NCBI GenBank assembly: GCA_025517465.1 | Contig: JAOPKE010000003.1 | Span: 1-64,000 of the forward strand | Direction: 5' to 3' | Length of the DNA: 64,000 bases | Source: Halobacteria archaeon HArc-gm2 | Lineage (GTDB): Archaea > Halobacteriota > Halobacteria > Halobacteriales > Haloarculaceae | Shown: positions 5,835 through 57,465 of the stretch, in pieces | Layout: every line of letters begins with the position of its first letter | How positions within the stretch are numbered: the first letter of the stretch is position 1 | Notes under the pieces: model-generated | Told to the model about the DNA's origin: nothing | The model's input: only the letters and a program-made list of their open reading frames with translations | The model's database searches: none | Position numbers and translations under genes: made by a program

Positions 5835-8800
5835 TCACCGGTATTTGTTGATGAGTTCGCGAATGTCGTCAGAGTCCACATAGAGGCCTTGGAGTCGAGT
5901 GGTTCTGTCTGCTTCTTTCAGTAGCATGTCTCCGTCTCCACCAAGTTCCTCTGCTCCACCTTCGTCGATTAGGATTCGAGAGTCAGACTGCTTTGGAAGT
6001 CGGAAAGCTACCCGAGTGTCCAAATTGGCACGGAGGTCCGTGTCGATAGCTTCGTGTGAAGGTCGCTGGGTAGAGATGACGAGATGGATACCCTGTGCCC
6101 GTGCGATTTGGGCGATGCGGCGCACATTGTCCTCGGTGTCGTCAGCGTCTTCTCCAAGTTGCTGGAGTAGGTCGCTGTATTCGTCGATGATGACGACGAT
6201 GGGCTTCATCTGGTCATCCGGGTTCTGCTCGTTGTACTCCCCGATGTCACGGCAGACGCTTTCCCGAAGAAGTTGTTTTCTACGCGGAATTTCGTCATCG
6301 ACGAGCCACTCGAACAGTTTAGCAGCGTCTTCGGCGTCAGTGATCACTTCGCCGTTTGAAAGATTCGGCAGGGCATCGAAGAAGATGAAGTCGGTCTCCT
6401 TTGGATCGACCAGGGCGAACTCAACATTTTCCTGGCCTTTCTGCTCCATGAAGTTCATAATCAGTGAGTACAGGAACACGGTCTTCCCGCTACCTGTTGC
6501 TCCGCCGACCAACATGTGCGGTGCTTCAGAGAGGTCAGAGCGGTAGACATCGCCGTCTGGTGTGACTCCTGCCAGGAAGGGTAGTGAGGCGGTCTCAATC
6601 TCGTCAGGCTGCTTGTACCGGTCTCCGTAGTCGCGTAGAGGGACGACGACGTTGTTCTCTCGGGGAACGTCAAGGGCAACGTATTCAGTGCCAGGGAGTT
6701 CTTGGAATATGGGTTCTTTTTCGAACGCCATTTCCCGGGCGATGTCCTCCATTCGTTGTTTTAGTGAGGCATTCTTCTCGTGGGAGGCGAGCCGAATCTT
6801 GAAGCGGACTACGTTTGGCCCAACTTCGATATCGTTAGAGTCGATTTCCTGGATGTCGATTTTGAAGTCGTTGAGTACCCGTTTCAGGGTTTCAACCTCG
6901 TCGCTGTACTGTTTTGTGGCTCCAAACCGGTCGGGCGAGGTTTCAGAGTCTTTGGGCCCTTCGCTTGTTTCCTCTGCCTTGTCCATGTCCTCGTCCGCAG
7001 TTGCACTATCCGTTTCTTCTTCCCCTTTTTGCATCCCTTCAGTGGTTCCCTCATCTTCCTCTGTAGTCTGAGTTTCCCGGTCTTCGATACCGCTGACGAT
7101 CAGGCGCTTGATCGACTGGCGGGGAAGCTTGTCGATCCTGATGGACTGGGCGTTGGGAGTTACCCCGTCGATTCGTTCGTCTGAAGTGGCCTCGCTCGTG
7201 ACTTCGACTGATACGATCCTCGGGTTGATATCGATTTGGGCATCGCCGTTGAATACATCGTTAATCCGGTCTGCCCACTCCTGTTTACCCTCCATCCCTT
7301 CTGCGGAGGTCAGCTCGTAGTACAGCTGTTCTCGGAGAGCTTCTTTTCGGGGCGACGTGGTGAGGTTTTTGTCGCCGGTGAACAGGCCGCGGATAGTGTC
7401 TGTCGTCTCGAAGACCTGATCGACGGCGCTTCCTTTCACGACCTTAGTGCCATCTTCGTCTTTGACAGTGTAGGCGGTGCTGGTTTCTTCAAGAGTCTTG
7501 ATTTCAATGATGTCGAGGATGAGGCCGCCGTCATCGTCGAACTGGACGGTAAGGATGTCGGCTCGGCTTTCACTGTCCCCCAGGTTCAGCCATTCCCGAG
7601 TACGTGGGTTGTCGATGGAGAAGATCAATTTGGGGTCTGCAAGTGTCTGCTGAAGCCACTGTACTGCAATGATAGAGCCAAGCAAGCCCTTCGTGTTCCT
7701 GGATTTTCCGCTGCCAAGGGTTTCCCGGGTGATGAGGCGGAGAAGACCGCTTTGCTGCAGGTCAGCGATTCTCTCCGCGATTTCCTCCAAGTCGGTGTCA
7801 TCTGGGGCGAGACGGTATTCGTTAATGATGCGCCGGAGGATCCGACGGAAGTAGTCGATATCCTCTGAGTACGTGGCGAAGTCGCGTTCGCCTCGTCGTT
7901 CCCTTGAGATCAGGTTGTCCTTCCAGAACGGATTACCGTTCATCGGTGGTGAGGAGATAGAGACCCAGATTGCGGAGTCGAGGAGCTCGTCAATAGTCTC
8001 TTTTTCGACGTTGAGTTCGTTGACCTCGGCGTTGTGGATGGCCTGGCGCTGATTATAGAGCTGGTTGATCAGGTCCTGGTACTCGGAGAAGAGGACGCCT
8101 TCCTTCGACGGTGAGATATTGATTTTGTCCTCGAGTAGGTCGTAGTCGAACTCTTTCGGGACATACAGAGGGTGGATTGTGGTTTCGGCGTCTCGTTCGA
8201 AGGTCTGGATGCTAAAGTCGCTCTGGTCGTTTATCAGAATGAAGTGCTGTGGATCACTTTTCAGATCCTCGCCGTATGAGTCGTAGCTGGGGTGTTCATT
8301 TGTAACGATCTCGAACTTGCCAGAGTCGTTGTCCGGACCGAACAGATTGATGATGTCCTCGGAGAGGCTGGGTGAGGCAGTGCCGTTAAGCACAGGCTTC
8401 TCTTCGTCCTCGATGAAGGCGAATTCCACTGTCGCGCCTTGGATTTCTTCTTTCTCCGCCAAGTCCGCGATATCCGAGAGCAGGTCCACCGGATCCAAGG
8501 GGTCGATAATGCTAATTTTGAGGTGGCGTCGGGATGGTGGATACGCTGACGTGAATTTATCGAGGACGTAGTCGTAGAACTTAGAGTTCGTACCTTCTGC
8601 TGCGTTCTCAATCCGGGTGTAGACCGGCAGGCGATCGACCTCCGCGGATTGTACGAGGTAGGTCTCATCTGCCAGCCGGTAGTTCCCGCCGACGTGAATG
8701 CTTCGGAGGACGTGTGGCTGTTCTTCGACGCTGTTGATGAGAAAGTCGCGTTCCTCCTCGGTCAGTGATTCCTTCTCCTCCTTCATCTCCCTCGCCAGTT

Positions 8801-10421
8801 TGGAGTATTTCCAAAGGTGAAGCGGGTGCAGCGGGGAGAGAACGAGTTCTCGGTCGTCTTCGTATTCTAGGATTATAGTGTCGAATAGGAGAAAGTCAGA
8901 GAGGAGTTTGGAGGAACCTTCGGAACTGACGTTCTGTATCTCTCGGTACTTCTTGTCCAGTTTATCCTGGACTTCACGGTATGACTCGATATACTCCTCT
9001 GCAGATCCCAGTAGGTCTTCGTCTCCGAGAAGCCGGATGAGGGGTGCGGATAGTAGTCCGGGTAGAGCGTCGACGAGTTCGCTGCGCGCTGTTACGTATC
9101 GGTCGATGGACTCAACCAGGTCTTCGAACTTGCCGCTGTTCTCGGCTACTCTACGGAGTTTTTCGAAGCTGCTGTCTTCGCCTCGCGGCTGGAACTTCTC
9201 GGTTCTCAGTGCTTGGAAGTTCTTGATCGCGCTCTGTCTGTCCTCTGGATTGTGGATGATTCCGCCGAAAGAGCTCTCAGTGACGAAGTGTTTGATGAAG
9301 TAGAAGAGGTCGTCGTTGACATCGAAGGCCAATTGTTCGTCCCCGGTGAATTCCATGTCGACTCGATTTTCTTCTTCCTCGACAGCTTCTCGGTACTGGT
9401 TATCGAACTCTTCAGAAAGGCGTTCCAGATCTTCGTCGTTGTCGTCGAAGACTGCTTCCACGCTGGCAGATTCGACATCTCTCCGGGTACTGGTAGTTGA
9501 ACGGCGGCGGCTAGACTGGCCCGAGGTGGAAAATATCTCTTTAACCTCGTTGTATGTCAGGTCGGCAAGAATCTCCGAGTCACCTGTTCGTTCGAACCGT
9601 CGAAGCTTGGCTACAGTTTTTTCCCGTTCTTCCCTTTCGCTGTCGTCGACTTTGGTGACACTGTTAGTGAGGCGACGTCGATCTCTGTTCGACATGTGGG
9701 AAACTCGCAGTACGAGGTCCAGGTTGTCGGAAAGCCTGTCAGGGATTTCGTCGGGATTGTTGAGGCCGGGGTCGTTGAACAGCCTCAGTCTGTAGAGTTC
9801 AATTCCGAGGGCGTCGAGTGAGGCTTGTTCTGATTCTTTGAGCGTCGAGGTCGCATAGTCAGCTACTGCAGGAATTTCGAATCGATCATACAGATTGGAT
9901 CCGAGGGTTTTCCAGAGAGCTTGGGCTGGGGGACTGTCGGCAAACTGTTCTTGGGCCTGTATCTGGTCGGTAATTTCCCGTGTGATTTCTGCTAGAGGCA
10001 GGTCGACCATGCCCTCGAAATCTTTCATCGAGTTCAGGCGTGCATGATCTCCCCGGATCAGGATCACCAACTTCTCTGGTTCGATACGTCCGTCCCATTC
10101 GAACCCAGTGTCGGTGCCGTTCCGCCAGTTGACGGCAACACTGACTTTGTCCGTGAGTCTGACGGAGGAGTCCTCAGTCCGTGACTGAAGATTGTCAATG
10201 TCTGCTTCACCGATGCTAACCATTGCCAGGCCGACATCGTATCGTGCTTTACTGCAGAGGATGTCGACGAACTCCTCAGCATCGAACCGGGGCGGAGATT
10301 CGATGATGACCCCGATATTTTCCTCAGTCAATTGTTCGACTGTTTCGTTGGCTGTTGCTTTGCCAATCAACTCCTCGTTGCTCTCGTATGAGTTGTCTTG
10401 TGTCTGCGTGCCTTCGTTCAT
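5835..10421 (-). CDS. FtsK/HerA-type DNA translocase with embedded nuclease motif (DptH-like)
   Basis: A 1528-residue protein, last intact gene of the leftward operon. The C-terminal third is an FtsK-type motor: Walker A GGATGSGKT (about 1306-1314), DPKETDFIFFDALP, Walker B VVIIDEYSDLL (about 1405) and a STQRPS motif. At about 953-974, RADILTVQF followed by DIIEIKT has the D...E-x-K pattern of a PD-(D/E)XK nuclease. An acidic low-complexity linker (about 1115-1165) separates this from the motor. Size, domain order and position last after an ATPase and a mid-sized gene resemble DptH (DndH) of phosphorothioation-dependent restriction. Its ATG overlaps the preceding stop as ATGA, so translation is coupled. 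The DptH relation is inferred. Confidence 0.65.
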   Translation of the reverse strand: MNEGTQTQDNSYESNEELIGKATANETVEQLTEENIGVIIESPPRFDAEEFVDILCSKARYDVGLAMVSIGEADIDNLQSRTEDSSVRLTDKVSVAVNWRNGTDTGFEWDGRIEPEKLVILIRGDHARLNSMKDFEGMVDLPLAEITREITDQIQAQEQFADSPPAQALWKTLGSNLYDRFEIPAVADYATSTLKESEQASLDALGIELYRLRLFNDPGLNNPDEIPDRLSDNLDLVLRVSHMSNRDRRRLTNSVTKVDDSEREEREKTVAKLRRFERTGDSEILADLTYNEVKEIFSTSGQSSRRRSTTSTRRDVESASVEAVFDDNDEDLERLSEEFDNQYREAVEEEENRVDMEFTGDEQLAFDVNDDLFYFIKHFVTESSFGGIIHNPEDRQSAIKNFQALRTEKFQPRGEDSSFEKLRRVAENSGKFEDLVESIDRYVTARSELVDALPGLLSAPLIRLLGDEDLLGSAEEYIESYREVQDKLDKKYREIQNVSSEGSSKLLSDFLLFDTIILEYEDDRELVLSPLHPLHLWKYSKLAREMKEEKESLTEEERDFLINSVEEQPHVLRSIHVGGNYRLADETYLVQSAEVDRLPVYTRIENAAEGTNSKFYDYVLDKFTSAYPPSRRHLKISIIDPLDPVDLLSDIADLAEKEEIQGATVEFAFIEDEEKPVLNGTASPSLSEDIINLFGPDNDSGKFEIVTNEHPSYDSYGEDLKSDPQHFILINDQSDFSIQTFERDAETTIHPLYVPKEFDYDLLEDKINISPSKEGVLFSEYQDLINQLYNQRQAIHNAEVNELNVEKETIDELLDSAIWVSISSPPMNGNPFWKDNLISRERRGERDFATYSEDIDYFRRILRRIINEYRLAPDDTDLEEIAERIADLQQSGLLRLITRETLGSGKSRNTKGLLGSIIAVQWLQQTLADPKLIFSIDNPRTREWLNLGDSESRADILTVQFDDDGGLILDIIEIKTLEETSTAYTVKDEDGTKVVKGSAVDQVFETTDTIRGLFTGDKNLTTSPRKEALREQLYYELTSAEGMEGKQEWADRINDVFNGDAQIDINPRIVSVEVTSEATSDERIDGVTPNAQSIRIDKLPRQSIKRLIVSGIEDRETQTTEEDEGTTEGMQKGEEETDSATADEDMDKAEETSEGPKDSETSPDRFGATKQYSDEVETLKRVLNDFKIDIQEIDSNDIEVGPNVVRFKIRLASHEKNASLKQRMEDIAREMAFEKEPIFQELPGTEYVALDVPRENNVVVPLRDYGDRYKQPDEIETASLPFLAGVTPDGDVYRSDLSEAPHMLVGGATGSGKTVFLYSLIMNFMEQKGQENVEFALVDPKETDFIFFDALPNLSNGEVITDAEDAAKLFEWLVDDEIPRRKQLLRESVCRDIGEYNEQNPDDQMKPIVVIIDEYSDLLQQLGEDADDTEDNVRRIAQIARAQGIHLVISTQRPSHEAIDTDLRANLDTRVAFRLPKQSDSRILIDEGGAEELGGDGDMLLKEADRTTRLQGLYVDSDDIRELINKYR

Positions 10422-11920
10422 ATTTCCTCCTCAGGGACAGAGACGATGGTAACGCCGTCCGCGTATTCCTCGGCGTATCCCAGGCTGGATACGGCTTCTT
10501 TGAAGCCCTCGTAGTTCTGGTTGTTCAGTGGGTCACTCTCAGATGCGCTGGCGCCGAGGCGGATGTCCCACTCGGCCAGGTGCCTGCGATCCTGCTCAGT
10601 ACCGCCTATGATGATCCCGTATCGTTGTCGGAGTTCTTCTGAAATATCTTGGAGGGACATGCTCGTACCAGGTTCGATTACTGAAAGTAGAATGGGTTCA
10701 AGCATTTCTGGATCAGGACGATACCTGCGTTTGTTCGCCCGGTTTCCTCGTGGTTTGAGTATCCCGGCACGCCAGGCGAATGTCTGGGCCGTGGATTGCG
10801 GTGTGTACGTGTCGAACCGGTTCGAGAAGTCGTGGATTACGTTGCTGACAGCATCCACTAGCCTGTGGAAGGTGGTATCCTGTTCGGGATCCCGCGAGGC
10901 ACGGAAGACCTGTTCAAACTTTTCGTAGTCCTGTGCGATCTTGTCCTCCTTGTTCCGGTTCAGTTCCAAGAAACTGTGATTCTCAATCTCTTGGAGGATG
11001 TCGTCCTCGCTGTAGTCTTTGTAGCCCTGCAGGTCGAGGATGTGCTTGACTCCGAGCCGGGTAGCTAATTGAATCTCGGACCCTACGACGCGGAAAGATT
11101 CGAGGCTGGCATCGGCTACCGGGTTGTTTTTGTTCCCTGTGTAGTTCAGAACTAAGGGGACCGGTTCGCCTTTACCTCCATCTTCCCGGATCTCATTGTG
11201 CCGGTTGGCCATGTAGATATAGAGCAGAAACCCGCCGAATTTGATTGTGCGGCGAAGATCACGAGCGTAGTTCAGGTCGTAGTCGCCGTTAGAGTCTTTC
11301 AGGTGCTTTGATAGAGTTTCGAAGCCTTCCACGAACTCTTCCGCTATTTTCCCGCTCCCAAATGCGTCTCCGAGGACAGGCTCTTCCCAGGGCGAGACCG
11401 TGACATTACCGTCCTCTCCATCTTTAGCGAGTGGTCGGAACAAGAGGGAGATGGCATCGTGGTGGTCTTGTAGTTGGTCCGTCAGTTTCTGGTTGATAGC
11501 GCTGTTAGATTCATCCAGTACGGTGTAAATGAACTGTGAGGGGGTCACACCGATTCGACGGTAGGCGACGAACCAGTCGCTCATTGAAGTCATCGCGGAG
11601 TGCTGTGGACTACTTGCGTACAGAGCATTATCGTTGTCCAAGACTTTCCGCATCCTGTATCGGAGGTTGTCCATCTGTTCGTCGCTGAGATCGCGGGAAG
11701 ACTCGAACAGATCGTGGTATTTTTCGTCCAATTCGCTGGAAGGGGTTTTCCCAGGTTTCTCGACAAACACAAACAAATCCTCCGATTGATGGGTAGAGCC
11801 GAGGACGTTGCTGAAAACGACCTGAGAAAGATGCACTGGTTTCAGGGACGCGGAGGTTGCTTTGAATCCAAATGCGGCTTCAGATGCGTCGGAGTTGACG
11901 TCGTTAAGTCTCATAGGCAT
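10418..11920 (-). CDS. DptG-like protein with C-terminal winged helix
   Basis: A 500-residue protein without a recognised catalytic motif. Alternative starts are ATG 11920 and ATG 11914. The N-terminal half is mixed alpha/beta. Near the C-terminus, LEPILLSVIEPGTSMSLQDI followed by an EELRQRYGIIIGG helix looks like a winged helix-turn-helix. It sits 6 bp after the P-loop ATPase gene and overlaps the translocase start, so it is the middle member of a three-gene unit laid out like dptF-dptG-dptH. Its role as a DptG equivalent rests on position and length alone and could be wrong. Confidence 0.5.
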   Translation of the reverse strand: MPMRLNDVNSDASEAAFGFKATSASLKPVHLSQVVFSNVLGSTHQSEDLFVFVEKPGKTPSSELDEKYHDLFESSRDLSDEQMDNLRYRMRKVLDNDNALYASSPQHSAMTSMSDWFVAYRRIGVTPSQFIYTVLDESNSAINQKLTDQLQDHHDAISLLFRPLAKDGEDGNVTVSPWEEPVLGDAFGSGKIAEEFVEGFETLSKHLKDSNGDYDLNYARDLRRTIKFGGFLLYIYMANRHNEIREDGGKGEPVPLVLNYTGNKNNPVADASLESFRVVGSEIQLATRLGVKHILDLQGYKDYSEDDILQEIENHSFLELNRNKEDKIAQDYEKFEQVFRASRDPEQDTTFHRLVDAVSNVIHDFSNRFDTYTPQSTAQTFAWRAGILKPRGNRANKRRYRPDPEMLEPILLSVIEPGTSMSLQDISEELRQRYGIIIGGTEQDRRHLAEWDIRLGASASESDPLNNQNYEGFKEAVSSLGYAEEYADGVTIVSVPEEEI

Positions 11921-11926
11921 TAGTAT

Positions 11927-13486
11927 TCACCTCCGCTCCATCTGGTACCGATCATCATTGACCGTCAGAATCTCGAGTTCGCCGGTCTCCGTATCCATGA
12001 TATGGACGGTACCATAGTCCTCATCGTGGCTTTCTCTATACTCAATCTCCTCCATAAACTCTAGCAACTGCTGTTCTTCCTCCCTTCCGCGTAGGATGTA
12101 AGGTATATTACCCTCCAAGGCACCAAGTGTTTCTGACAGATCTGGGTCGATCCGGAGTCTGACTGTCGAGGTCCTGCCTTCGTATTCGAGAACATGGTGG
12201 TCGTGGTTGTAGTCCATGGCATCGCTGATTTCCGGGTGGAGTTGCGGGACCCGGCGATTTAGCTCACGTTTCGGGATTTCTGTCCGGGAAATCAGGGATA
12301 AGGAACTTTTGGATCGGTAGTTGTGGGACAGCCAGACCCGAAGGTCGGATCCTTTGGAGGAGTCCGGCATAAAGTAGCTGTTAATCATCTCTATGACGTC
12401 CTCTTTTACGCTATCGTCTGCACGTTCCCTATTACGCTGGTTGTGGAAGGAGTAGTTGGTTTCGTGGTAGAGATCGCGGGCGTCGTAGTCTTTGATGGCA
12501 ACATCCTCGAAGTAGAACTGGCGTTTTTTCTCGATGAAGCGTTGATCGACTTCTTCCTCTGAGTCTTCTTCGTCTCTCCGTGAGACTTCTTCTTCGGCGT
12601 CTGCCCAGAGCTTGCTGTCGATGAATGGATGTGTGAGGTCGCGGGGATGGAAGTATTCGTTGAGGAGAGTGAATATCTTCCCGCTACCGCTGAAGGCGAG
12701 GTTGTAGTATTTTAGGTCTTCACCGAAGTCAGTGACACTCTCTTCCTTGGCCCCAGTAATGCAGTAAGCGAGAAAGTTCAGAAGGTCCCGGACAGTAACG
12801 TGGGCGTCCAGCTGGCCGACCGACTGGAGGAGACGAATGATGTTATCTCTGACACGGTTGTTCCGCATCTTGTCCATATTGTAAGCGATATGGCCGTCGA
12901 TGTCGTCGCCATTATTCTCTTTCAGAAATTTGTTCGAGGTGAGGTTCTCGATAGCCTGGCCAATGACTTTGCGCGTGAGGATGTTCCGGTTATTGAGGTC
13001 AATGACGACGATAGAGTCGAAGTCAGCGTTGTCGGCTTGACCTTCGTCGTAGATAATCTGGTTTTGGAACTGGTTACGAACCTTTTCCAAGAAGGGATAC
13101 TCATCGGCGTGTTGGGTCGTCATCTCATAGAGAGGACCGTCGTTGATAGCGAGGATACCAGGACGGCCGTCGTCGAGGGCGTCTTGCCATTTATCGAGTA
13201 AGACGGTGTAATCGTCGTACTCGGAGGCGTCAGAAAGATAGAAACAGTCGGGTTCCGGGTATTCGGTCTTCATCTGCAGGATGTACTGAGTTTTCCCGTC
13301 GCCGGGGTTTCCGGTGAGAACGACCTGCTTTCCATCTTCCAGTGCGCTCTGCAAGTATTTCTCCCCATCTAGGCGAGTTGTTATGTGTATCTCCCTACGT
13401 TGCTCATCGGTGAGTTGTTCAGCGAAGCCACCCTGTGCCAGCTGCGAAAGGAATCGTAGATTTAGTGTTGATGCTTCAATTCCCAT
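11927..13486 (-). CDS. P-loop ATPase, DptF-like
   Basis: A 519-residue ATPase. Walker A is GNPGDGKT (59-66), preceded by a strand VVLTGN; FDSIVVIDLNNRNIL (157-170) is a candidate Walker B. The GNxGDGKT form and an early start region (LRFLSQLAQGGFAEQL) resemble DptF (DndF), the ATPase of phosphorothioation-dependent restriction. The C-terminal half contains an acidic stretch (about 305-325) and no nuclease motif that I can see. It lies 39 bp after the DUF4338-like gene and 6 bp before the 500-residue gene. It likely supplies ATP-driven recognition or loading for the FtsK-type partner; this is inference from family. Confidence 0.6.
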   Translation of the reverse strand: MGIEASTLNLRFLSQLAQGGFAEQLTDEQRREIHITTRLDGEKYLQSALEDGKQVVLTGNPGDGKTQYILQMKTEYPEPDCFYLSDASEYDDYTVLLDKWQDALDDGRPGILAINDGPLYEMTTQHADEYPFLEKVRNQFQNQIIYDEGQADNADFDSIVVIDLNNRNILTRKVIGQAIENLTSNKFLKENNGDDIDGHIAYNMDKMRNNRVRDNIIRLLQSVGQLDAHVTVRDLLNFLAYCITGAKEESVTDFGEDLKYYNLAFSGSGKIFTLLNEYFHPRDLTHPFIDSKLWADAEEEVSRRDEEDSEEEVDQRFIEKKRQFYFEDVAIKDYDARDLYHETNYSFHNQRNRERADDSVKEDVIEMINSYFMPDSSKGSDLRVWLSHNYRSKSSLSLISRTEIPKRELNRRVPQLHPEISDAMDYNHDHHVLEYEGRTSTVRLRIDPDLSETLGALEGNIPYILRGREEEQQLLEFMEEIEYRESHDEDYGTVHIMDTETGELEILTVNDDRYQMERR

Positions 13487-13525
13487 ATTTACTTTAGATG
13501 TTGATGACCGAGTGTGCCCGCCATG

Positions 13526-15643: not shown

Positions 15644-15864
15644 AGTAATCTGGTTAACGTAGCAAATCGTTCACTGCTGAAATCCAAAAGAGTATCGACT
15701 CGACTCAGGTTGTATCGCCTGCAGTCTGGTGGATCGTGAGCAAATGTATATTTGATACCATATGTATTCAGAATAACAATAGATTTAATTTGCTGTCCAT
15801 CAGGTTTGATAGCACATGAAGAAGGGTACTATCAGAACTGTAATTAGCAGCCATCAGACTGTCC
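15644..15864. promoter_or_regulatory. divergent promoter region of the defence locus
   Basis: About 220 bp between the outward-facing first genes of the two operons. It is AT-richer than the flanking genes. TTTGATACC, AATAGATTTAATTTG and TTTGATAGC stretches around 15755-15820 could serve as TATA elements for either direction. Shared control of both operons from this interval is inferred from layout; no operator dyad was identified with confidence. Confidence 0.4.
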
Positions 15865-17361: not shown

Positions 17362-19184
17362 ATCTGAAACCCGGTGATGAGTTCACAGCGGAAGTAGACA
17401 ACGTTACGAACCGTGGGACCTGCACGGTGAAATACGACGGAGAAAGGATTAATATTGGACCGGTCACATGCGAACCTGGACGGTCGGTTCGATTGCGATA
17501 TCTCGGAGCAGACTCAGTAGCCGGGACATCGATACGCTTCGCGCTTTGCCTAACCGACGAAGTCCTCGCAGATGGGTATAAAGACCACATTCGACGCCAT
17601 GTGAGTGGCCTTCTTCCAGACCGCCCTCCACAAGAGGGAGAACAGACATACATTGAGATCGATAAACTCGATGAGCATGGACTCGGGCTTGCGGTTGCAG
17701 GCGGTGAAGTCGTTGAGCTTGGGCCCGTACAAGCAGACGAAGGCGACTTAATACACGTAGTCGGACGCGAGCCAGGATATGCGGAAATATTGAACGCAAG
17801 GGCGCGTGGCAAACGCTATAGAACACGCTTCAATATTCTTCGCGAGCGTTGGCAAGAACTCCCAGTCAGGAAGGGTGTATCGTTCACCGCGACAATAGAT
17901 GACACCGATGGCAATAACCTCATTGCGTACGTTGACGGGATGCCAGTACACTTCCCAGGCGGTAATGCCAGAATCGGCCAAAAAATTGATGCAGAACTCA
18001 TTAGATTCAACCGGGGGCGCGGGATTGGTCGGGTGACACAGATCTCTGATACGGTTGGGGATATCGAAGATCCGGGTCATGATACGCGGATGCAGCACCT
18101 TCAGCAAGCAGGAATCGGCCAGGAACCGTTTCGTGCATTGGCCCAGCGGTTTATCGGTGTGAGTAACGAGCAACTGCCGTCAAACGAGATCGGTATCCGA
18201 GACGCCTTAATCGGTGAGGCAATTCGACTTGGGCTTGCTGAGAAGGCTGAATCGGGCGATCAACAGTATCCACAGGCACACGTCACTGCGATCCGTCACT
18301 GGGTCGTCCATAAGCTGGAGGCTGTTCTCGGACAGCCAGCCGTAGACACCGACTCACCATCCGATGATGTTGGGTGGTTCCGGGCAGCATTAACGGAGCG
18401 TACCGGCCCAACAATCACGTTCCTCGGTGATGTGATCCAGCTATCACAAGGGTACTATGCTCCAGCCCCGACGCGAGCTGTGATGATCTCCGAATCCGAG
18501 GCCGTGCTCGTTTCAGGAGATCCAAGCCGTCCATTCCTGGAGTCGGGCTTTGAGATCGAATTTCGGGGATTGACTCGGATACTTACTGACACTAGTGAAG
18601 AAGAACTGCGTTCGAGAGAAATCCCTGTTCATTCTAAAGATGAATACATCGGTCTGGGCGAAGCGCCGATCACGACACCTGCCACACTACGTGAGTACAT
18701 TGAGCAACGGCCACAGGAATCGTGGGAACCGGAGGAAGATTGGGAACCATACACTGGACAGTACTATGGATTCAGCGTAGATGGTGAGCCACTCGTCATT
18801 GAAGAGGCAGATGGAACTGCGGTCAGCTTGTGGCGAGTTCCAGTCGAATACGGCGCCGATACCTACCAATTTAGGATTCAATCGAGCGACGGCAAAACAA
18901 TGGCTGTCACTGTCTCACCGAAATTCCGCAAACATGCATGCCTTACTCTCGACTCAATGGCCGAGGACCCACAGACAATTGAACTCACCGCATATGACGA
19001 GGAGGTGTTGTTGAGTTGCGACTTTGCACCACCACGGGCACAGATGCGCTGGCTGTACGCAGTCGGAGCAGAGTGGCTCGAGACATCGTCGTATCAACTT
19101 CAATGGCGAATTTCGAACACCGATGCCGAATCAGTACGGGAAGTCTTCGACGAACTGCCTGTGAACATCATCGACAACACATAA
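17358..19184 (+). CDS. TRAM-repeat protein of the helicase operon
   Basis: A 608-residue protein. The N-terminus holds up to three TRAM/OB-like barrels: 4-50 (GDEFTAEVDNVTNRGTCTV onward), about 96-145 (EIDKLDEHGLGLAV) and about 172-225 (KGVSFTATIDDTDGNNL). TRAM domains bind RNA or DNA. A middle helical region is followed by LSQGYYAPAPTRAVMIS then EAVLVSGDPSRPFL and a G-L-T-R-I end (about 355-410), a pattern I associate with proteins next to large defence helicases. It overlaps the gene before it by 4 bp and ends 1 bp before the helicase, so it is probably a helicase partner. No nuclease motif is visible. Confidence 0.5.
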   Translation: MNLKPGDEFTAEVDNVTNRGTCTVKYDGERINIGPVTCEPGRSVRLRYLGADSVAGTSIRFALCLTDEVLADGYKDHIRRHVSGLLPDRPPQEGEQTYIEIDKLDEHGLGLAVAGGEVVELGPVQADEGDLIHVVGREPGYAEILNARARGKRYRTRFNILRERWQELPVRKGVSFTATIDDTDGNNLIAYVDGMPVHFPGGNARIGQKIDAELIRFNRGRGIGRVTQISDTVGDIEDPGHDTRMQHLQQAGIGQEPFRALAQRFIGVSNEQLPSNEIGIRDALIGEAIRLGLAEKAESGDQQYPQAHVTAIRHWVVHKLEAVLGQPAVDTDSPSDDVGWFRAALTERTGPTITFLGDVIQLSQGYYAPAPTRAVMISESEAVLVSGDPSRPFLESGFEIEFRGLTRILTDTSEEELRSREIPVHSKDEYIGLGEAPITTPATLREYIEQRPQESWEPEEDWEPYTGQYYGFSVDGEPLVIEEADGTAVSLWRVPVEYGADTYQFRIQSSDGKTMAVTVSPKFRKHACLTLDSMAEDPQTIELTAYDEEVLLSCDFAPPRAQMRWLYAVGAEWLETSSYQLQWRISNTDAESVREVFDELPVNIIDNT

Positions 19185-19185
19185 C

Positions 19186-22100
19186 ATGAAATCAATCAAA
19201 GAAGTCTCGGAAGAGCTCGAGAACGACCTTCAACAGTACATCGAATCACGGTACCACCTCCATCATCCGCGGCTTCTCAAGGAACGTCGTGCCCTGATGA
19301 ATGAGGGCGAGACAGCCACCGAACCTTGGGTCGAGGCCACACCGACCTATGTCTCGGGCGATCCCCTCAGAGAGTTGGACTTGCCGAGCGAAGTTGTTGA
19401 CTTGCTGAAAGAGCTCGAAAGCGACGATCTCGACATCTTCGATCCACCATACAAACATCAGGCCGACGCTCTCCAATCGTTCTTCAACGACGAGGATGAC
19501 CTCATCGTATCAACCGGGACGGGGTCCGGGAAAACCGAGATTTTCCTCTATTCAATTCTGGGGCAGCTCGCCCAGGAGGCAGCGCGAGGAGAGACAGCCG
19601 ACCAACGTGGGATACGGACATTGGTTCTCTATCCAATGAACGCCCTCGTCGCGGATCAGCTCTCGCGGATGCGCCTACTCTTTGGTGACGAGAAAGGGGC
19701 AAATACACTTGAGGACTACATGGGCCGGCGTGTACAGTTTGGGATGTACACGAGTCGTACACCCTATCATGGGGAATACGACAAGAGTAAGAACGATAAT
19801 CTGGTCAAGCCGGTCATCAACCGATATCTCAAGTTGGAGGAAGAGCAGCCGGACCTCTACGAACAACTCGCAGATAAAGGTCGTATTCCTGCAAAGGATC
19901 TGGAAAGATTCCGGAACAAGAATAAGAAAAAGGAAACTCACTTCCGTACCCAACCCGGCGATACCGAACTGTTCACACGTCAAGAGATGCACACTCGCGA
20001 TGGAAGCAATCCCCATGGCGGGACGCCGGATCTCCTGATCACGAACTACTCGATGCTGGAGTATATGCTACTCCGGCCGATCGAACAGCCCCTTTTCGAG
20101 GATACCCGTGAGTGGCTTGCGGAAGACGAAGATAACGAATTGAATATCGTCCTTGACGAGGCTCACCTCTATCGGGGCGCACAGGGGGCAGAGGTTGCGC
20201 TCCTTTTGAGCCGCTTACTCCAGAAACTCGGGATATCTCGCGATCGTGTGCGCTTCATTCTTACGAGTGCGACGATGGGCGAAAATGTAGAAGAAGTAGC
20301 CCCAGACTTTGCGGCCCAGCTCACAACCGGAGATCCAGACGATTTCTCAGTAATCAGAGGAGAACAGGTGGAGTACGAAGGTGGTGAGCCGAGCGAAAAG
20401 CGTACGGCGCAACTCCTAGAGCGAGTAGGTTACCAGCTAGAGGACCCATCGAAGATTCGTAACGTCGCGAGCGAACGAGGCTGGGACCCCCTCGAAAGTG
20501 ATGACGTAGAATCGGTCCGTTCGTACCTCGCCGACCAGTTAGTCGAGGACCCTCTCTTCCGCTTGGCGCACGAATTCCTTCGTGAAGAGCCACTGCGCCT
20601 ATCAGACCTCGCCGAAGAGTTATTCGAGGATATCGATAAAGAATTGGCCCGTGAAGCGACTGGGAATCTTCTATACCTTTGTACGGAAGCTCGTCAGGGA
20701 GAGGACCAGGCATTGCTCCCGACGCGGCTCCATATGTTCCTCAAAGGGCTCCCCGCCCAGTATGCGTGTGTCAATCCCGAATGTAGTGGTCGACGTGTTA
20801 CAGAGGGGGAAAACCTCCTCGGACGCATTTACAGTAACCCGCACACGACCTGTAAATACTGTGACGGTCGCGTCTTCGAATTGATTAGCCACCGAACCTG
20901 TGGGGCAGCGTATCTACGAGCGTATCGACGATCTGATGACGAACGCGGGCCGACTTTCCTGTGGTCAGATCCCGAGAGCAGCGAGGATTTGGACGAACTC
21001 CACCTGTTAGTTGAGGAACCTCGCAACGACCCGAATCCAGACCACGAACACGGCCGTTCGCTCGCCGAGACAACGACCTCACGGAACCTCTCAATTGCCT
21101 CTGGACACCTTGTTGATGATCGACACGTAGACGACGAGGCACTGACAACTCATATTGAGGTCCAGGTCCCGACTGAAGAGCCTCCGGATGAGGACGGTGC
21201 ATGGAGTTGGACTCAATGCCCGGCGTGCGGGATCAAAGAGCGACGGCGTCCGAATGGCGACACGAAGATTGAAGATCTGGTTACCAAAGGCGAGGAGCCA
21301 TTCGCACAAAGCGTCCGGTCAATGTTTGGCATCCAGCCGACCGACCCACTCAAAAAGGAGTTCCCCAACGAGGGGCGCAAGGTATTGTGCTTCTCTGATG
21401 GTAGACAAAAGGCAGCCCGCTTAGCTCGCGATCTCCAGTCAAATGTTGAATCCGACTCGTTCCGCGAGGTCCTGACCGACATTATTGGATCCACGGACGG
21501 TAAAATCACAATGGATCGGTTATTCGCCGAGTTCGCAGTTTACTGTGCCAATAACAACATCGTATTCTTTGACGACAGTGACCAATACACGAATCAGTCG
21601 GGAGTCGTGTATAAGGGGTCACGCTCCCACTTCGAGGATATTCGTGGAAACCTGTCCGACATCGTCGATGAGTACTACCTTGAGTCCATCGATGATATTC
21701 CTGAGGTCCCAGCCGCACGCAATGCGTTGTCGGAGCGTCCCCGCCAATATGAGGAACTTCTCCTCCGATCACTTGGGGATGAACAGTACTCCATCACCGG
21801 TGCCCTCGTCGGATACATTGCGCCGTCCGAGGAGGTGTTTGAGAAAATCGATGAAGCTGTCCCTGAAATTGAGACAGACCAGCTCAAGAGCATCCTCATA
21901 GAGGCGCTCCGCCATGCCTGCGAGGAACGGGCATTTGATTCAAGTATTGAAGCCAGACGACGTTCGAACTCCTACCCCTACCAAAATTGGATTGACCCGG
22001 ACAAGACGGGGCTCCCTCACAGTGAAATAATCCCTGAGTACATTGTAGAATCACTCGACGACGAAGTACCGGAAGAGGCGTGGAATAGTCTGAAACGGGC

Positions 22101-24609
22101 GTTGATGACGACAGAACCGGTATTGTTTGGGGCCTCCCACGGTAATTACTTCGCCAATCCGAAAGCAACGACAATCGATCTCCGACTCGACGACGATTGG
22201 TACCGGTGCGAAGGATGTCGTCGGTTCTCGGTCGTGTCACTCAATGATTCGTGCCCCTACGATGGTTGCCGCGGAACTCTCAGTGCGGTAAGCGATGATG
22301 ACATCCATCTCCAGGCACGCAAGAACTTCCTCCGGAATCCACCACGCGAAGTGCTTCATGGCAAACGGGACCCACTCACGCTTCGTTCAGAAGAGCACTC
22401 AGCCCAACTGAGTGCAAAGGACAACTCCGAGGCGTTTGCACGCTCCGAAGAGTACGAACTGCTTTTTCAGGACATCCTCGTCGGGGACTCTGAGGCCGAT
22501 CAACCGATCGACGTGCTAAGTTGTACGACTACGATGGAAGTCGGGATTGACATCGGGAGCCTTACTGGCGTCGCCATGCGGACGGTCCCGCCAGGACCAG
22601 AGAATTATGAGCAACGTGCTGGCCGCGCAGGGCGTCGCGGGGCCGGACTCTCGACGATCGTCACCTTCGCGGACAACTCCCCTCACGAGTCACACTATTT
22701 CGAGAACCCTGAAGAGATGATCACAAGCGATGGAAACGCACCGGTCATCTACGCTGGCAACGAAAAGATCGCCCGACGGCACATCAACGCCTCGCTGCTT
22801 GCTCGATTCTTCGACCCATCGGCTGTCGAGACGGAAGCCGCCGTATTCCGCTCACTCAAAGGTACAGCCGAGTTCTTTGAAGGAAAAGGCGACCAAACGC
22901 TCGCCGCGTTTGAAGATTGGCTGGACGAAGAAATCTTCGCTGATTCATCATCGACGGTGGAGCAATTAGGTGCCCTCCTTCCGGATGCACTAGGAGAAGG
23001 ACGATCATCCGACTGGGAGGTCGCATTAGTCCGCGACGCCGCTACAGAGTTCCTAAGCGAACTCCAGGATCTACAAGCCAAGACAGAATGGGAAGAGCAA
23101 TCCACGGAGGACGATGATCTACTTTCCGTCCTTCTGGATGCAGCCCTACTTCCGACGTTTTCGTTCCCGACTGATGTGGCCGATTTCGTCGTGCGCGAAA
23201 ATGAACCAAGGTCGTCACAGCCGAAGAACAAGTACCAGATGTCTCGGGATCTTAAGCAGGCACTCTCAACGTACGTTCCAGGCCGGGAAATCGTCGTTGA
23301 CAAGAAGACCTACGAGTCCTACGGTGTCTATGTCAAATTCCCAGATAACCCGAAGAACCGCTTGGCTGGCGAAGACTGGGGAGACCTCGATTGGTTGAAC
23401 TGGTGTGACGTCTGTAAGACGGTTTTTGAGGAGCATGATGGGAGTCTCGCAGCCAGGGATATGGAGTGCCCTGTCTGTGAAGGAGCGACGGTCAGTTCAC
23501 TCCAGATGTACACTCCGGAGGCATTTGCACCGAAAGTCGATGAGACAGGTGCAGCTGAGAAAGGGTCGGACTACAACGAGAACCGGGCCTACGCGACACA
23601 GCCTAAATACCCGCTTACGTCGACTTCTCATGAAAGTGAGAACGCTAGCGAGATGGTTGAGGAGAAATCCATTGGCCATTCGATAGTGGGGAAGATGAAT
23701 GACGAACAACTTCTTGTCGCTAATTTCGGAGCTGATGAGGATGGATTCGAGGTTTGCACCGACTGTGGGGCCGTTAGTCGCGATGGTCCACTCTCAAATC
23801 CCCATGCACGTCCCTACCCCAAGGATCTCCGATTCGTTGGTGAATATGACTGGGATGACCAGTGTACCGGGTCGACGGTCACGACGAGTTTCAGCCATCG
23901 CTTCCCCAGTGATTTGACCGTCCTCCAAATTCCGTTGGGTGATGAGATGGAGTTCGTCCCATCGGAAGCGTGGTTCGAGACACCGGGCCAGTCACTTGCG
24001 GAAGCATTAGTCATGGGTGCATCCCGTGCACTGGGAATCGAAGATGATGAACTCGAAGGGGGATTTCGAACTCGATCTGCAGAACATGCCGATATCGACG
24101 CGCAAGGCGTTATCGAGGTCTTCCTTTTCGACACAACCGCCGGTGGTGCTGGGTTCTCATCGCGCGTCTGGGAGGAATTCGACGCGGTATGTGCAAAAGC
24201 TCGCTCGATCCTCGAGAGTTGTTCATGCGATACGGCGTGCCACAACTGTCTGCGCCGATATCAGAACCGCCATCTCCACGACTCATTGAACCGCCATGAA
24301 GGCCTCGCCTTACTAGATTACGCGCAGACAGGCACGCCCCCGACGCTTCGTCCGGAAAAGACACAGAGCCTAATCCAGCAACTAGAACGTGCCTTGGAGT
24401 TGAAGCAGGAGGACGTCGCACTCAGAGCAATTGACGACGATAAATGGGAGATTGAGATTGACGAGGCGACGATGGTTTTCGGCGTCCGCTCGAGTCTGCG
24501 GCGTTCACGTGCGCCTGAGTCTACGACGTACGACGAAGACTACTCAGACTACGAATTGTCCCAGCGGTTGCCTGAGGTGGCTCACTCGATCGTCGATCAA
24601 CTCCAATAG
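19186..24609 (+). CDS. DruE-like superfamily 2 helicase with DUF1998-type C-terminus
   Basis: An 1807-residue helicase. Visible motifs in order are GTGSGKTE (about 109-116), LVLYPMNALVADQLSRM (Ia), LDEAHLYRG (about 322), LTSATMG (about 357), VLCFSDGRQKAARLA (IV), CTTTMEVGIDIGS (V) and QRAGRAGRRG (VI, about 1143). Between and after these lie several CxxC zinc pairs (about 527/556, 678, 1008, 1407/1428, 1524). A closing DUF1998/MrfA-type region has DTTAGGAGF and CSCDTACHNCLRRYQN (about 1680-1695). The very long helicase with DUF1998 is what defines DruE of Druantia and related DISARM/Dpd-type helicases. It likely translocates on invading or unusual DNA. ATP hydrolysis motifs are intact. Confidence 0.8.
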   Translation: MKSIKEVSEELENDLQQYIESRYHLHHPRLLKERRALMNEGETATEPWVEATPTYVSGDPLRELDLPSEVVDLLKELESDDLDIFDPPYKHQADALQSFFNDEDDLIVSTGTGSGKTEIFLYSILGQLAQEAARGETADQRGIRTLVLYPMNALVADQLSRMRLLFGDEKGANTLEDYMGRRVQFGMYTSRTPYHGEYDKSKNDNLVKPVINRYLKLEEEQPDLYEQLADKGRIPAKDLERFRNKNKKKETHFRTQPGDTELFTRQEMHTRDGSNPHGGTPDLLITNYSMLEYMLLRPIEQPLFEDTREWLAEDEDNELNIVLDEAHLYRGAQGAEVALLLSRLLQKLGISRDRVRFILTSATMGENVEEVAPDFAAQLTTGDPDDFSVIRGEQVEYEGGEPSEKRTAQLLERVGYQLEDPSKIRNVASERGWDPLESDDVESVRSYLADQLVEDPLFRLAHEFLREEPLRLSDLAEELFEDIDKELAREATGNLLYLCTEARQGEDQALLPTRLHMFLKGLPAQYACVNPECSGRRVTEGENLLGRIYSNPHTTCKYCDGRVFELISHRTCGAAYLRAYRRSDDERGPTFLWSDPESSEDLDELHLLVEEPRNDPNPDHEHGRSLAETTTSRNLSIASGHLVDDRHVDDEALTTHIEVQVPTEEPPDEDGAWSWTQCPACGIKERRRPNGDTKIEDLVTKGEEPFAQSVRSMFGIQPTDPLKKEFPNEGRKVLCFSDGRQKAARLARDLQSNVESDSFREVLTDIIGSTDGKITMDRLFAEFAVYCANNNIVFFDDSDQYTNQSGVVYKGSRSHFEDIRGNLSDIVDEYYLESIDDIPEVPAARNALSERPRQYEELLLRSLGDEQYSITGALVGYIAPSEEVFEKIDEAVPEIETDQLKSILIEALRHACEERAFDSSIEARRRSNSYPYQNWIDPDKTGLPHSEIIPEYIVESLDDEVPEEAWNSLKRALMTTEPVLFGASHGNYFANPKATTIDLRLDDDWYRCEGCRRFSVVSLNDSCPYDGCRGTLSAVSDDDIHLQARKNFLRNPPREVLHGKRDPLTLRSEEHSAQLSAKDNSEAFARSEEYELLFQDILVGDSEADQPIDVLSCTTTMEVGIDIGSLTGVAMRTVPPGPENYEQRAGRAGRRGAGLSTIVTFADNSPHESHYFENPEEMITSDGNAPVIYAGNEKIARRHINASLLARFFDPSAVETEAAVFRSLKGTAEFFEGKGDQTLAAFEDWLDEEIFADSSSTVEQLGALLPDALGEGRSSDWEVALVRDAATEFLSELQDLQAKTEWEEQSTEDDDLLSVLLDAALLPTFSFPTDVADFVVRENEPRSSQPKNKYQMSRDLKQALSTYVPGREIVVDKKTYESYGVYVKFPDNPKNRLAGEDWGDLDWLNWCDVCKTVFEEHDGSLAARDMECPVCEGATVSSLQMYTPEAFAPKVDETGAAEKGSDYNENRAYATQPKYPLTSTSHESENASEMVEEKSIGHSIVGKMNDEQLLVANFGADEDGFEVCTDCGAVSRDGPLSNPHARPYPKDLRFVGEYDWDDQCTGSTVTTSFSHRFPSDLTVLQIPLGDEMEFVPSEAWFETPGQSLAEALVMGASRALGIEDDELEGGFRTRSAEHADIDAQGVIEVFLFDTTAGGAGFSSRVWEEFDAVCAKARSILESCSCDTACHNCLRRYQNRHLHDSLNRHEGLALLDYAQTGTPPTLRPEKTQSLIQQLERALELKQEDVALRAIDDDKWEIEIDEATMVFGVRSSLRRSRAPESTTYDEDYSDYELSQRLPEVAHSIVDQLQ

Positions 24610-24613
24610 CGGA

Positions 24614-25480
24614 ATGGATGATTCAGAACAGTTAGCACACGTAAACTGGTCGGCGTCCGCAGCGCGGCTTTTCGAAGAGTGCCCACGGCGGTTCTTCTAT
24701 CGATACCAGCAATCCGAGTCTACCGGAGGCCATAGTGAATATACACCCACGCCTGGAGTCTATCTGGGGACAGTTGTGCACAAGTCTCTCTCAGCCCAGA
24801 TTGCACGGTGGGCCCGAGGCGAGAACATCCATCTCCAGACAGCGACGGATTATGCAAGGGACAAACTTGAGTGGTACGTTGAAGCTAATGCTGAGGAGAT
24901 CGCAGATCGGAATGGCGACACCGATGAGGGAGAATTCAATATCGATTCCTTCGCCCATTCGTTAATTCGCACCGCGCGTGAGCACATCAAGCAATTCTTC
25001 CGCGTGATTTGGCCACACTTTGAGGGGCATCGCTACATTGCTCACGAAACGCGGCAGACTTTCGATATTGCTGAAGAGCCCGTAACCGTACAACCAGATC
25101 TCTGTACACGAAGCGCAGAAGGAGACTTTGTCGTCACCGACTGGAAGACAGGGGCGTATGACCGGTTTAGCAACCCGACGATACAGATGCAAGCATATGC
25201 ACTCTATGCTCATGAAGCGTATGAACCCGAGTTCAGGCGGATTCGAGTCCAATTAGTCCATACGGGAAGTGGGGAGTTCGATCGAATGGTGCCGACCAGA
25301 GATGATATCAGACGGGTGCGAGAGCGGATTACGAACGAGAGGTCCTTTTGGAACAGTCAGAGAGACGTAGGATCTTATGAGACGGATCCAACTGTCAAGA
25401 AATGCAGCCAATGCTCGTACCTTCACCGATGTACAGATGGGCAAGCCGTCGTGGGGGATACCCAGAATCAATCTAAGTAG
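24614..25480 (+). CDS. Cas4/RecB-like PD-(D/E)XK nuclease with Fe-S cysteines
   Basis: A 288-residue protein from ATG 24614, 4 bp after the helicase stop; the frame extends upstream but only as overlap. It has ECPRRFFYRY (C23), GTVVHKS (H56), QPDLCT (D162), VVTDWKTG (D176-x-K178) and QMQAYALYA, the full order of motifs of RecB/Cas4-family nucleases. C23 with C264, C267 and C273 (CSQCSYLHRC) gives the four cysteines of the usual 4Fe-4S cluster. All catalytic residues appear intact. As the last gene of the helicase operon it is the best candidate for a cutting subunit working with the helicase, as AddB or Cas4-type nucleases do. It ends the defence operon. Confidence 0.8.
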   Translation: MDDSEQLAHVNWSASAARLFEECPRRFFYRYQQSESTGGHSEYTPTPGVYLGTVVHKSLSAQIARWARGENIHLQTATDYARDKLEWYVEANAEEIADRNGDTDEGEFNIDSFAHSLIRTAREHIKQFFRVIWPHFEGHRYIAHETRQTFDIAEEPVTVQPDLCTRSAEGDFVVTDWKTGAYDRFSNPTIQMQAYALYAHEAYEPEFRRIRVQLVHTGSGEFDRMVPTRDDIRRVRERITNERSFWNSQRDVGSYETDPTVKKCSQCSYLHRCTDGQAVVGDTQNQSK

Positions 25481-25547: not shown

Positions 25548-26048
25548 TTACTTACGCAATTGATAGATCCACTTGCGGCGGATAAAATCATCAACTGATG
25601 AACGACCTTCGCGCGACTGCCAACTATCTCCCTGGGCTTTCTCTTCCCGAACCAGTTTGAAACCTGCCGCTGAATAAACCGTTCCCCTGTTACCTGCTAC
25701 TCCAGCATGAGCAGAGACCCGTTGATACCCCTCTAAGAACGCCCACTTTCGAGCGCGAGCAATAAGCCAAGAACCCGTGTTTGATGGTCTTTCGGGTCGC
25801 GATCCGTACCGCGTAATTGAGATTTCTTCATCTTCATCAACCATTCGAGCCACAGGACGTCCAAGAACGCAGACTGCGATTAGATTAGACTCATAACGAG
25901 CTCCGAAAGCAGCTTTCCATCCCGGGATACCCCCTAATATGTGGTTTACTTCTTGTGACTCGAGAAAATCGTTAATCTCGTTTCGGCTTCTCTCTCGGGT
26001 TAGTTTGAGATCCGATACAGAACCAGGCGCTGATATTGGACCTTTCAT
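25548..26048 (-). CDS. Mom-like / XF1762-like GNAT-fold protein
   Basis: A 166-residue protein. GWKAAFGARYESNLIAVCVLG followed by RPVAR, an acidic turn, an RYGSRPERPSNTGSWLI segment and a GYQRVSAHAG...YSAAGFKLV end matches the acyltransferase-like fold of phage Mu Mom and XF1762-like proteins. Mom converts adenine in DNA to N6-carbamoylmethyladenine, protecting phage from restriction. The asparagine-serine segment and the GF near the end are the family marks I rely on. It is convergent with the defence operon, 67 bp past its end. It could modify host DNA for self-recognition or be a phage remnant; the sequence does not decide. Confidence 0.55.
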   Translation of the reverse strand: MKGPISAPGSVSDLKLTRERSRNEINDFLESQEVNHILGGIPGWKAAFGARYESNLIAVCVLGRPVARMVDEDEEISITRYGSRPERPSNTGSWLIARARKWAFLEGYQRVSAHAGVAGNRGTVYSAAGFKLVREEKAQGDSWQSREGRSSVDDFIRRKWIYQLRK

Positions 26049-28539: not shown

Positions 28540-28550
28540 AGTAATCTTCC

Positions 28551-57330: not shown

Positions 57331-57465
57331 GCCGGACTAGCGGTCTAGATTGGCGAAGACAGTTGCTGGGACGAACTGCATCGCTATCTCCAGTTTTGTT
57401 AGAAGCGAAAGGTGGGATATCAGCGAACGGAGATTCATAAGCGAAGACGGGACCAATATTTCCCG

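What the first reader, a model, noticed from the sequence alone, without database searches (positions are those of the whole stretch)
5835..25480. Divergent eight-gene defence locus combining DruA/DruE-like and DptFGH-like parts
Two coupled four-gene operons face away from a shared 220-bp promoter. Left: DUF4338 (DruA-like), P-loop ATPase, mid-sized winged-helix protein, FtsK-type translocase. Right: CoiA-type zinc finger protein, TRAM-repeat protein, DruE-like helicase with DUF1998 end, Cas4/RecB-like nuclease. Known relatives cover only parts. Druantia has DruA and DruE but no FtsK trio. DptFGH, and the PbeABCD module reported in haloarchaea, pair with dnd phosphorothioation genes, which are absent here. 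The set could be a new composite system, or an archaeal Pbe-type module beside a Druantia/DISARM-like one.
Basis: partly seen in the sequence, partly recalled or inferred. Interest (0 to 1): 0.88.

Follow-up and report, generated by a model that had tools for sequence, protein, structure and literature searches.

The report
Druantia joined with a DndFGH module
A mobile block of nine genes in salt-loving archaea joins parts of two known antiviral systems (Druantia type I and DndFGH) with, usually, a probable DNA-marking enzyme, and it travels as one unit between distantly related hosts, so it probably acts as one layered defence machine.

Summary
Left: DruA plus DndF/SspF-, DndG/SspG- and DndH/SspH-like proteins. 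Right: a CoiA/DruB-like protein, a TRAM protein with a DruD-like end, full-length type I DruE, and a Cas4/RecB-like Fe-S nuclease. Gene nine is an XF1762/Mom-like GNAT-fold protein. In 391 haloarchaeal genomes DruA and F occur in the same 11; DruE occurs in 9, all inside those 11. The set survives at 56-62% DruE identity and in a rearranged, convergent layout. DndC and DndE are absent from all 11 carriers and the trio matches no Pbe model, so the phosphorothioate and Pbe readings fail. In bacteria DruA pairs either with DruE or with FGH (often fused to F); both together were seen in only two bacterial loci. The composite is thus a genuine haloarchaeal union of two known modules sharing one DruA. 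Standalone archaeal DndFGH and DUF4338-DndF fusions are published; I found no report of the union. Best mechanism: PT-independent DNA restriction by a translocase-nuclease complex followed by helicase-nuclease destruction; self-marking by the Mom-like enzyme is plausible but unproven.

The parts
5835..10421 (-). H: DndH/SspH-like protein, 1528 aa: N-terminal region with conserved PD-(D/E)XK-like triad D955/E973/K975, then FtsK-alpha and FtsK motor (Walker B D1413-E1414, Q1452)
   Evidence: Pfam FtsK_SpoIIIE 8e-34 and FtsK_alpha 3e-10; SspH 2e-68; triad at least 95% conserved in 24 homologues; solved FtsK 6e-68 and DptH 7es4 4e-7
10418..11920 (-). G: DndG/SspG/MAD7-like protein, 500 aa
   Evidence: SspG 1e-12; MAD7 3e-7
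11927..13486 (-). F: DndF/SspF-like P-loop protein, 519 aa, Walker A GNPGDGKT at 59-66
   Evidence: SspF 2e-15, DndF 2e-7; Walker A conserved in 18 homologues
13526..15643 (-). DruA (long form, DUF4338), 705 aa
   Evidence: Pfam DruA 1e-35; PADLOC DruA1 4e-146; AF2 pLDDT 87.6
15644..15864 (.). 221-bp divergent intergenic region
   Evidence: coordinates; aligned in 6 loci, mean column identity 88% including flanks
15865..17361 (+). CoiA/DruB-like protein, 498 aa, N-terminal C31-C34-H51-C61 zinc finger
   Evidence: CoiA_N 2e-5; zinc-finger region matches the bacterial DruB group by hhalign, 91.5% over 46 columns
17358..19184 (+). TRAM-like N-part plus DruD-like C-part, 608 aa
   Evidence: TRAM 0.0065, below cut-off; DruD1 2.6e-6 at 355-432; stand-alone 355-aa version in Natribaculum hits DruD1 8e-7
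19186..24609 (+). DruE type I, YprA-family helicase with MZB/DUF1998 module, 1807 aa
   Evidence: PADLOC DruE1 1570 bits, residues 2-1806; MZB 2e-13
24614..25480 (+). Cas4/RecB-like PD-(D/E)XK nuclease with four conserved Cys (Fe-S type); ORF opens at 24431 but ATG 24614 is the likely start
   Evidence: PDDEXK_1 5e-23; Cas4 1.5e-7; C84, C325, C328, C334, H117, D223, K239 conserved in 13 homologues, numbered on the 349-aa ORF
25548..26048 (-). XF1762/Mom-like GNAT-fold protein, 166 aa (candidate DNA base modifier)
   Evidence: XF1762_fam 53.4 bits, cut-off 50; Pfam Mom 1e-4, below cut-off, but 10 of 19 homologues hit Mom, best 3e-11; linked to DruE in 8 of 9 haloarchaea and in Natribaculum

Best explanation
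The locus is one mobile composite antiviral cassette in which a Druantia type I core (DruA, DruB-like, DruD-like, DruE, plus a Cas4/RecB-like nuclease) and a DndFGH-type restriction complex share a single DruA, usually with a Mom-like DNA-modifying enzyme. Shown here: gene content, homologies, conserved catalytic motifs, co-inheritance in several arrangements, and absence of Dnd modification genes. Inferred: the F-G-H-DruA complex scans DNA (G and the N-part of H bind DNA, the FtsK motor of H pumps it, F senses nucleotide state) and nicks or cuts incoming DNA with the PD-(D/E)XK site of H. DruE, aided by the DruB/D-like proteins, then unwinds the damaged or replicating viral DNA and the Fe-S nuclease degrades it. 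Inferred and less certain: the Mom-like protein marks host DNA so that it is spared, making the set restriction-modification-like without phosphorothioation.
For: Profiles: DruE1 full length, DruA1, SspF/G/H. Motifs: Walker A in F, D955/E973/K975 in H, Fe-S cysteines and active site in the nuclease. Co-inheritance: DruA and F in the identical 11 of 391 genomes, DruE in 9, all within the 11 (hypergeometric 1e-16 before allowing for kinship). Linkage kept when the layout changes: divergent in the window and seven assemblies; convergent in G149 and Natribaculum, where mom-CoiA-DruD-DruE-nuclease faces H-G-F-DruA. Neobacillus carries DruC-DruD-DruE-DruA-F-G-H on one strand. DruA is one gene serving both halves and is fused to F in many bacteria. 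No DndC or DndE. Published basis: DndFGH as a standalone nuclease-translocase system (PMC10853773); type III DruE as helicase-nuclease (PMC13192584).
Against: In bacteria the two halves mostly occur apart, and two haloarchaea have the left half alone, so FGH plus DruA does not need DruE. G129 lacks the Mom-like gene. Right-half genes diverge much faster than left ones, which could mean replacement rather than co-evolution. Relatives of the Mom-like protein sit in virus-like contexts, so it may be an anti-restriction gene. Foldseek gave no significant PDB match for DruA or for the N-part of H.
Confidence: 0.6

Rival explanations
1. Two independent systems share a defence island: a DruA-DndFGH system on the left and a reduced Druantia type I on the right. 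They move together only because the island moves, and DruE may borrow or not need DruA.
For: Left half alone in G026 and Halobaculum litoreum; mostly separate in bacteria; unequal divergence of the halves.
Against: DruE was never found without the left half in 391 haloarchaea. The right half has no DruA of its own. The same gene set persists at 56-62% DruE identity and through a change of layout, while genes flanking it are not conserved. Neobacillus has both halves on one strand.
Confidence: 0.27
2. An ordinary phosphorothioation-dependent Dnd/Ssp or Pbe restriction module beside a Druantia system.
For: F, G and H match SspF, SspG, SspH and DndF models.
Against: DndC over its cut-off in 18 of 391 genomes but in none of the 11 carriers. 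DndE absent from all 11 while 4 of 4 positive controls rang. No PbeB, C or D hit. SspBCD were not searched separately.
Confidence: 0.05
3. The Mom-like gene is a passenger or an anti-restriction gene of viral origin, not the self-marking enzyme; the system tells self from non-self by DNA state (free ends, replication intermediates) like other YprA/Druantia systems. This is compatible with the composite itself being real.
For: A homologue in Haloarcula hispanica tailed virus 1 is annotated Mom-like; another homologue lies beside terminase and integrase genes; absent in G129 and in all bacterial loci.
Against: Linked to the right half in 8 of 9 DruE carriers and in Natribaculum (75% identity), moving with it when the layout changes.
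Confidence: 0.45

Closest known systems
Druantia type I (DruABCDE)
   Same: Long DruA, type I DruE over its full length, a DruD-like domain, a zinc-finger protein resembling DruB's N-terminus.
   Different: No DruC; DruA sits in the FGH operon; extra Cas4/RecB-like nuclease; extra FGH; Mom-like gene.
Standalone DndFGH / SspFGH (PMC10853773)
   Same: F, G and H families, FtsK-alpha plus FtsK motor, conserved nuclease motif; DUF4338 known as a DndF fusion partner; DndFGH reported in archaea.
   Different: DUF4338 is a separate DruA gene here, and the trio is tied to DruE and a nuclease; no link to Druantia is mentioned in that paper.
MADS (MAD7, MAD8)
   Same: G resembles MAD7 and the motor of H resembles MAD8.
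   Different: No other MADS gene, and no methyltransferase, was hit among the eight proteins.
BREX-related capture (BRC) systems (PMC12839542)
   Same: Composite of a HerA/FtsK translocase with a GNAT as putative self-DNA modifier.
   Different: BRC is built on PglZ/BrxC-like parts and often TGT; no Druantia genes.
DndCDEA-PbeABCD of haloarchaea (PMC6459918)
   Same: Haloarchaeal host, four-gene cassette.
   Different: No homology of F, G, H to PbeB, C or D; no DndC or DndE gene.

Membership tests
Druantia type I | DruE of type I (YprA-family helicase with DUF1998/MZB) | tested here: met
   1570 bits to DruE1, residues 2-1806, far above DruE2, 3 and 4
Druantia type I | DruA (DUF4338) | tested here: met
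   PADLOC DruA1 4e-146, Pfam DruA 1e-35
Druantia type I | DruB | tested here: inconclusive
   No PADLOC DruB hit; only the N-terminal zinc finger aligns with the DruB group, 46 columns, 91.5%
Druantia type I | DruC | tested here: not met
   No DruC hit among window proteins or in Natribaculum's 558-aa protein; positive controls Pseudomonas putida and Neobacillus rang
Druantia type I | DruD | tested here: inconclusive
   DruD1 2.6e-6 over about 78 residues of the TRAM protein; longer match in a stand-alone homologue
DndFGH / SspFGH | F: P-loop nucleotide-binding protein | tested here: met
   SspF 2e-15, DndF 2e-7; conserved Walker A
DndFGH / SspFGH | G: triple winged-helix protein | tested here: inconclusive
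   Family match met (SspG 1e-12, MAD7 3e-7), but the winged helices themselves were not resolved
DndFGH / SspFGH | H: nuclease followed by HerA/FtsK motor | tested here: met
   FtsK motor; D955/E973/K975 conserved
DndFGH / SspFGH | H: SNF2-like, TRD and inactive methyltransferase domains | tested here: inconclusive
   Best Foldseek matches of the N-part are largely methyltransferases, including M.BseCI (probability 0.95), but none reaches E 0.001; no HMM hit for the N-part alone
PT-dependent Dnd system | dndC/dndE modification genes in the genome | tested here: not met
   Absent from the window genome and from all 11 carriers
PbeABCD | PbeA-D homologues | tested here: not met
   Only DruE hits PbeA, through the generic helicase, 3e-4
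DISARM | DrmA, DrmB, DrmC with a methylase | tested here: not met
   Only weak DrmA hits through DruE helicase motifs; no DrmB, DrmC or methylase among the eight proteins
XF1762 / Mom-like GNAT | Curated profile score | tested here: met
   XF1762_fam 53.4 bits over cut-off 50; Pfam Mom 22.3 below its 27.1 cut-off
XF1762 / Mom-like GNAT | DNA adenine modification activity | not testable with these tools
   Needs mass spectrometry or nanopore data

The most novel reading that the evidence does not exclude
This is a restriction-modification-like system of a new chemical class: the Mom-like GNAT-fold enzyme marks host adenines, the DruA-DndFGH translocase-nuclease attacks unmarked DNA, and DruE with the Fe-S nuclease finishes it, with DruA as the hub that links the Druantia and DndFGH families.
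Probability: 0.25. Interest if true: 0.82.

Novelty: new variant of a known kind. Interest (0 to 1): 0.62.

Why it matters
It links two defence families described separately and suggests that DruA, whose role is unknown, is a shared component that works either with the DruE helicase or with the DndFGH translocase-nuclease, and in haloarchaea with both. It offers a phosphorothioate-free DndFGH in which the self/non-self signal can be looked for, with a concrete candidate (a Mom-like modifier). Natural left-only and Mom-less versions make the dependence of each part directly testable.

Tried and rejected
PT-dependent Dnd module: rejected. Pbe module: rejected. DISARM or Dpd: only generic helicase similarity. 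DruA fold by Foldseek: no significant PDB match; several weak MYST acetyltransferase matches (E 6-10) agree with the published GNAT assignment but prove nothing. H N-part: methyltransferase-like matches, none significant. DruA profile against PDB sequences: no hit. Flanking genes 3039-4418, 4645-5397 and 26755-27726 as further members: rejected, not found in any other locus. Direct repeats or a tRNA marking island ends: none found. Mom-like gene in bacterial DruA loci: none. One genome search failed for a wrong accession.

Full report
WHAT IS THERE. The window is the first 64 kb of a 520-kb contig of a haloarchaeal genome. A relative in the same genus has a 75,827-bp contig that is the size of a Halomicrobium urmianum plasmid, so the genus is probably Halomicrobium (inference). 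The G+C of the stretch (about 0.48-0.55) is below much of the rest of the window.

LEFT OPERON. DruA (705 aa; PADLOC DruA1 4e-146), F (SspF 2e-15, DndF 2e-7), G (SspG 1e-12; MAD7 3e-7) and H (SspH 2e-68, through an FtsK-alpha plus FtsK motor). F has a conserved Walker A in 18 homologues; H has D955, E973 and K975 at 95% or more in 24 homologues and a conserved FtsK motor. The motor matches solved FtsK (6e-68) and, more weakly, DptH 7es4. An AlphaFold2 model of residues 1-1130 of H (pLDDT 79) puts E973 and K975 on a strand next to a strand that begins beside D955, as expected of a PD-(D/E)XK core; that reading is mine. Its best fold matches are largely methyltransferases including the DNA adenine methylase M.BseCI, none significant; this agrees with, but does not prove, the inactive methyltransferase domain described for DndH (PMC10853773).

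RIGHT OPERON. DruE is type I over its whole length (1570 bits). Before it come a protein with a CoiA-type zinc finger that aligns with the N-terminus of bacterial DruB and a 608-aa protein whose C-terminal part is DruD-like. No DruC was found. After DruE comes a Cas4/RecB-like nuclease with four conserved cysteines and a conserved active site. Type I DruE is reported to carry an inactivated C-terminal Vsr nuclease (PMC12458937), so this separate nuclease may supply the cutting activity (inference).

NINTH GENE. At 25548-26048 (minus), 67 bp after the nuclease, lies an XF1762-family protein (53.4 bits, cut-off 50). Pfam Mom is hit below its cut-off, but 10 of 19 homologues hit Mom, best 3e-11, and the homologue in Haloarcula hispanica tailed virus 1 is annotated 'Mom-like DNA modification protein'. 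It is present in 8 of the 9 DruE-carrying haloarchaea of the survey (truncated by a contig end in G149) and in Natribaculum longum; it is absent from G129, the left-only loci and all bacterial loci.

CO-INHERITANCE. In the same 391 class-level genomes DruA occurs in 11, F in the identical 11, and DruE in 9, all among the 11. Naive odds are 1e-16; kinship weakens this, since six of the other eight DruE carriers are at least 85% identical in DruA and 95-96% in DruE, i.e. one recently spread cassette, found in six different genera. Independent support comes from G129 (DruE 72%), G149 (62%) and Natribaculum (57-58%), which keep the set. In G149 and Natribaculum the halves are convergent rather than divergent, and the Mom-like gene moves with the right half. 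Several copies are on plasmids. The left half stands alone in G026 and in Halobaculum litoreum, where it occurs twice with broken reading frames.

NOT PHOSPHOROTHIOATE. DndC passes its cut-off in 18 of 391 genomes but in none of the 11 carriers; with so few carriers that lack of overlap is not itself significant (P 0.59), but it shows the genes are missing. DndE is absent from all 11 while four positive controls rang. PbeABCD is stated by its discoverers to be unrelated to DndFGH (PMC6459918), and F, G and H hit no Pbe model.

BACTERIA. A scan of 84,980 species genomes with a DruA alignment gave 50 loci. By iterative HMMs (my count) 16 have DruA with F, G or H and no DruE in view, 17 have DruA with DruE and no FGH, 5 have both (three haloarchaea, Neobacillus mesonae, and an uncultured proteobacterium), and 12 have neither, some on short contigs. 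In Neobacillus DruC, DruD, DruE, DruA, F, G, H and an SfsA-like nuclease lie on one strand. In many bacteria DruA and F are one protein; Hymenobacter canadensis is an annotated example. In several DruE-type loci DruA follows an HSP90-like ATPase gene. So DruA has two alternative partner sets, and the window unites them.

PRIOR ART. Rakesh, Aravind and Krishnan (PMC10853773) describe DndFGH as standalone, report it in archaea, and note DUF4338 fused to DndF, calling it a GNAT domain. They do not mention Druantia or YprA. Bell et al. (PMC12458937) classify YprA helicases including type I DruE; 'ftsk' is absent and 'dnd' occurs once in their main text. A 2026 BREX survey (PMC12839542) describes another composite joining HerA/FtsK with a GNAT as putative self-marker. 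Text searches pairing Druantia with DndFGH or FtsK turned up no paper that, by title, abstract or the passages I read, describes this union. The library holds only openly licensed papers, so absence there is not proof of novelty.

MECHANISM. Shown: gene content, motifs, linkage, lack of Dnd genes. Inferred: FGH with DruA scans and cuts incoming DNA while translocating; DruE and the Fe-S nuclease destroy the opened DNA; the Mom-like enzyme may mark self. I give about 0.6 to the composite being one functional unit, and about 0.25 to the full self-marking version.

LIMITS. No experiment. Right-half proteins evolve much faster than left ones (for example CoiA 47% against F 84% between the window and G129), which fits either an arms race or replacement. 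SspBCD-type modification was not searched.

Noticed in passing
window 27841-29779, minus: queC and, by sequence, probable queE and queD genes (archaeosine/preQ0 pathway) lie close to the cassette; the same stretch is found in same-genus relatives, so the cassette seems inserted near a chromosomal locus.
   Followed up: partly
L078 8349-9965, L096 569-2206, L068 7953-9797, L087 8307-9824: In bacterial Druantia-type loci DruA is directly preceded by an HSP90/MORC-like HATPase (Pfam HATPase_c_3, PADLOC MzaB), a partner I have not seen named for Druantia.
   Followed up: partly
L105 19815-20525; L066 19772-20470; L103 19722-20444; L070 11832-12515: In Paenibacillus and Neobacillus an SfsA-like DNA/RNA nuclease gene follows H (or DruA) closely; NCBIfam match tested in L105 and L066, the other two look alike by sequence.
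   Followed up: partly
L025, L026 (Halobaculum litoreum plasmid): Two near-identical copies of the left half at distant sites of one plasmid; each has broken reading frames (DruA, F and H in L025; G and H in L026).
   Followed up: no
window 13526-15643 (DruA model): The DruA model matches predicted proteins of giant viruses (Faunusvirus A0A3G4ZXG3, E 2.6e-8, TM 0.52 of target; Yasminevirus A0A5K0UAJ3, E 7e-6) but nothing significant in the PDB.
   Followed up: no
L157, L158, L159: Other haloarchaeal XF1762/Mom-like genes sit beside terminase and integrase genes, near an N-6 DNA methylase, or in plasmid regions of unknown function; some are part of longer proteins.
   Followed up: partly
L099-L102 (Pelagibacteraceae): Four Pelagibacteraceae loci carry DruA with a conserved roughly 600-aa upstream gene but neither DruE nor FGH in view.
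   Followed up: no
window 30021-31370; 47443-48852; 57412-58701; 43311-46904: Fic-domain protein, subtilase, LAGLIDADG-like protein and a 1197-aa ORF with no Pfam hit elsewhere in the window.
   Followed up: no
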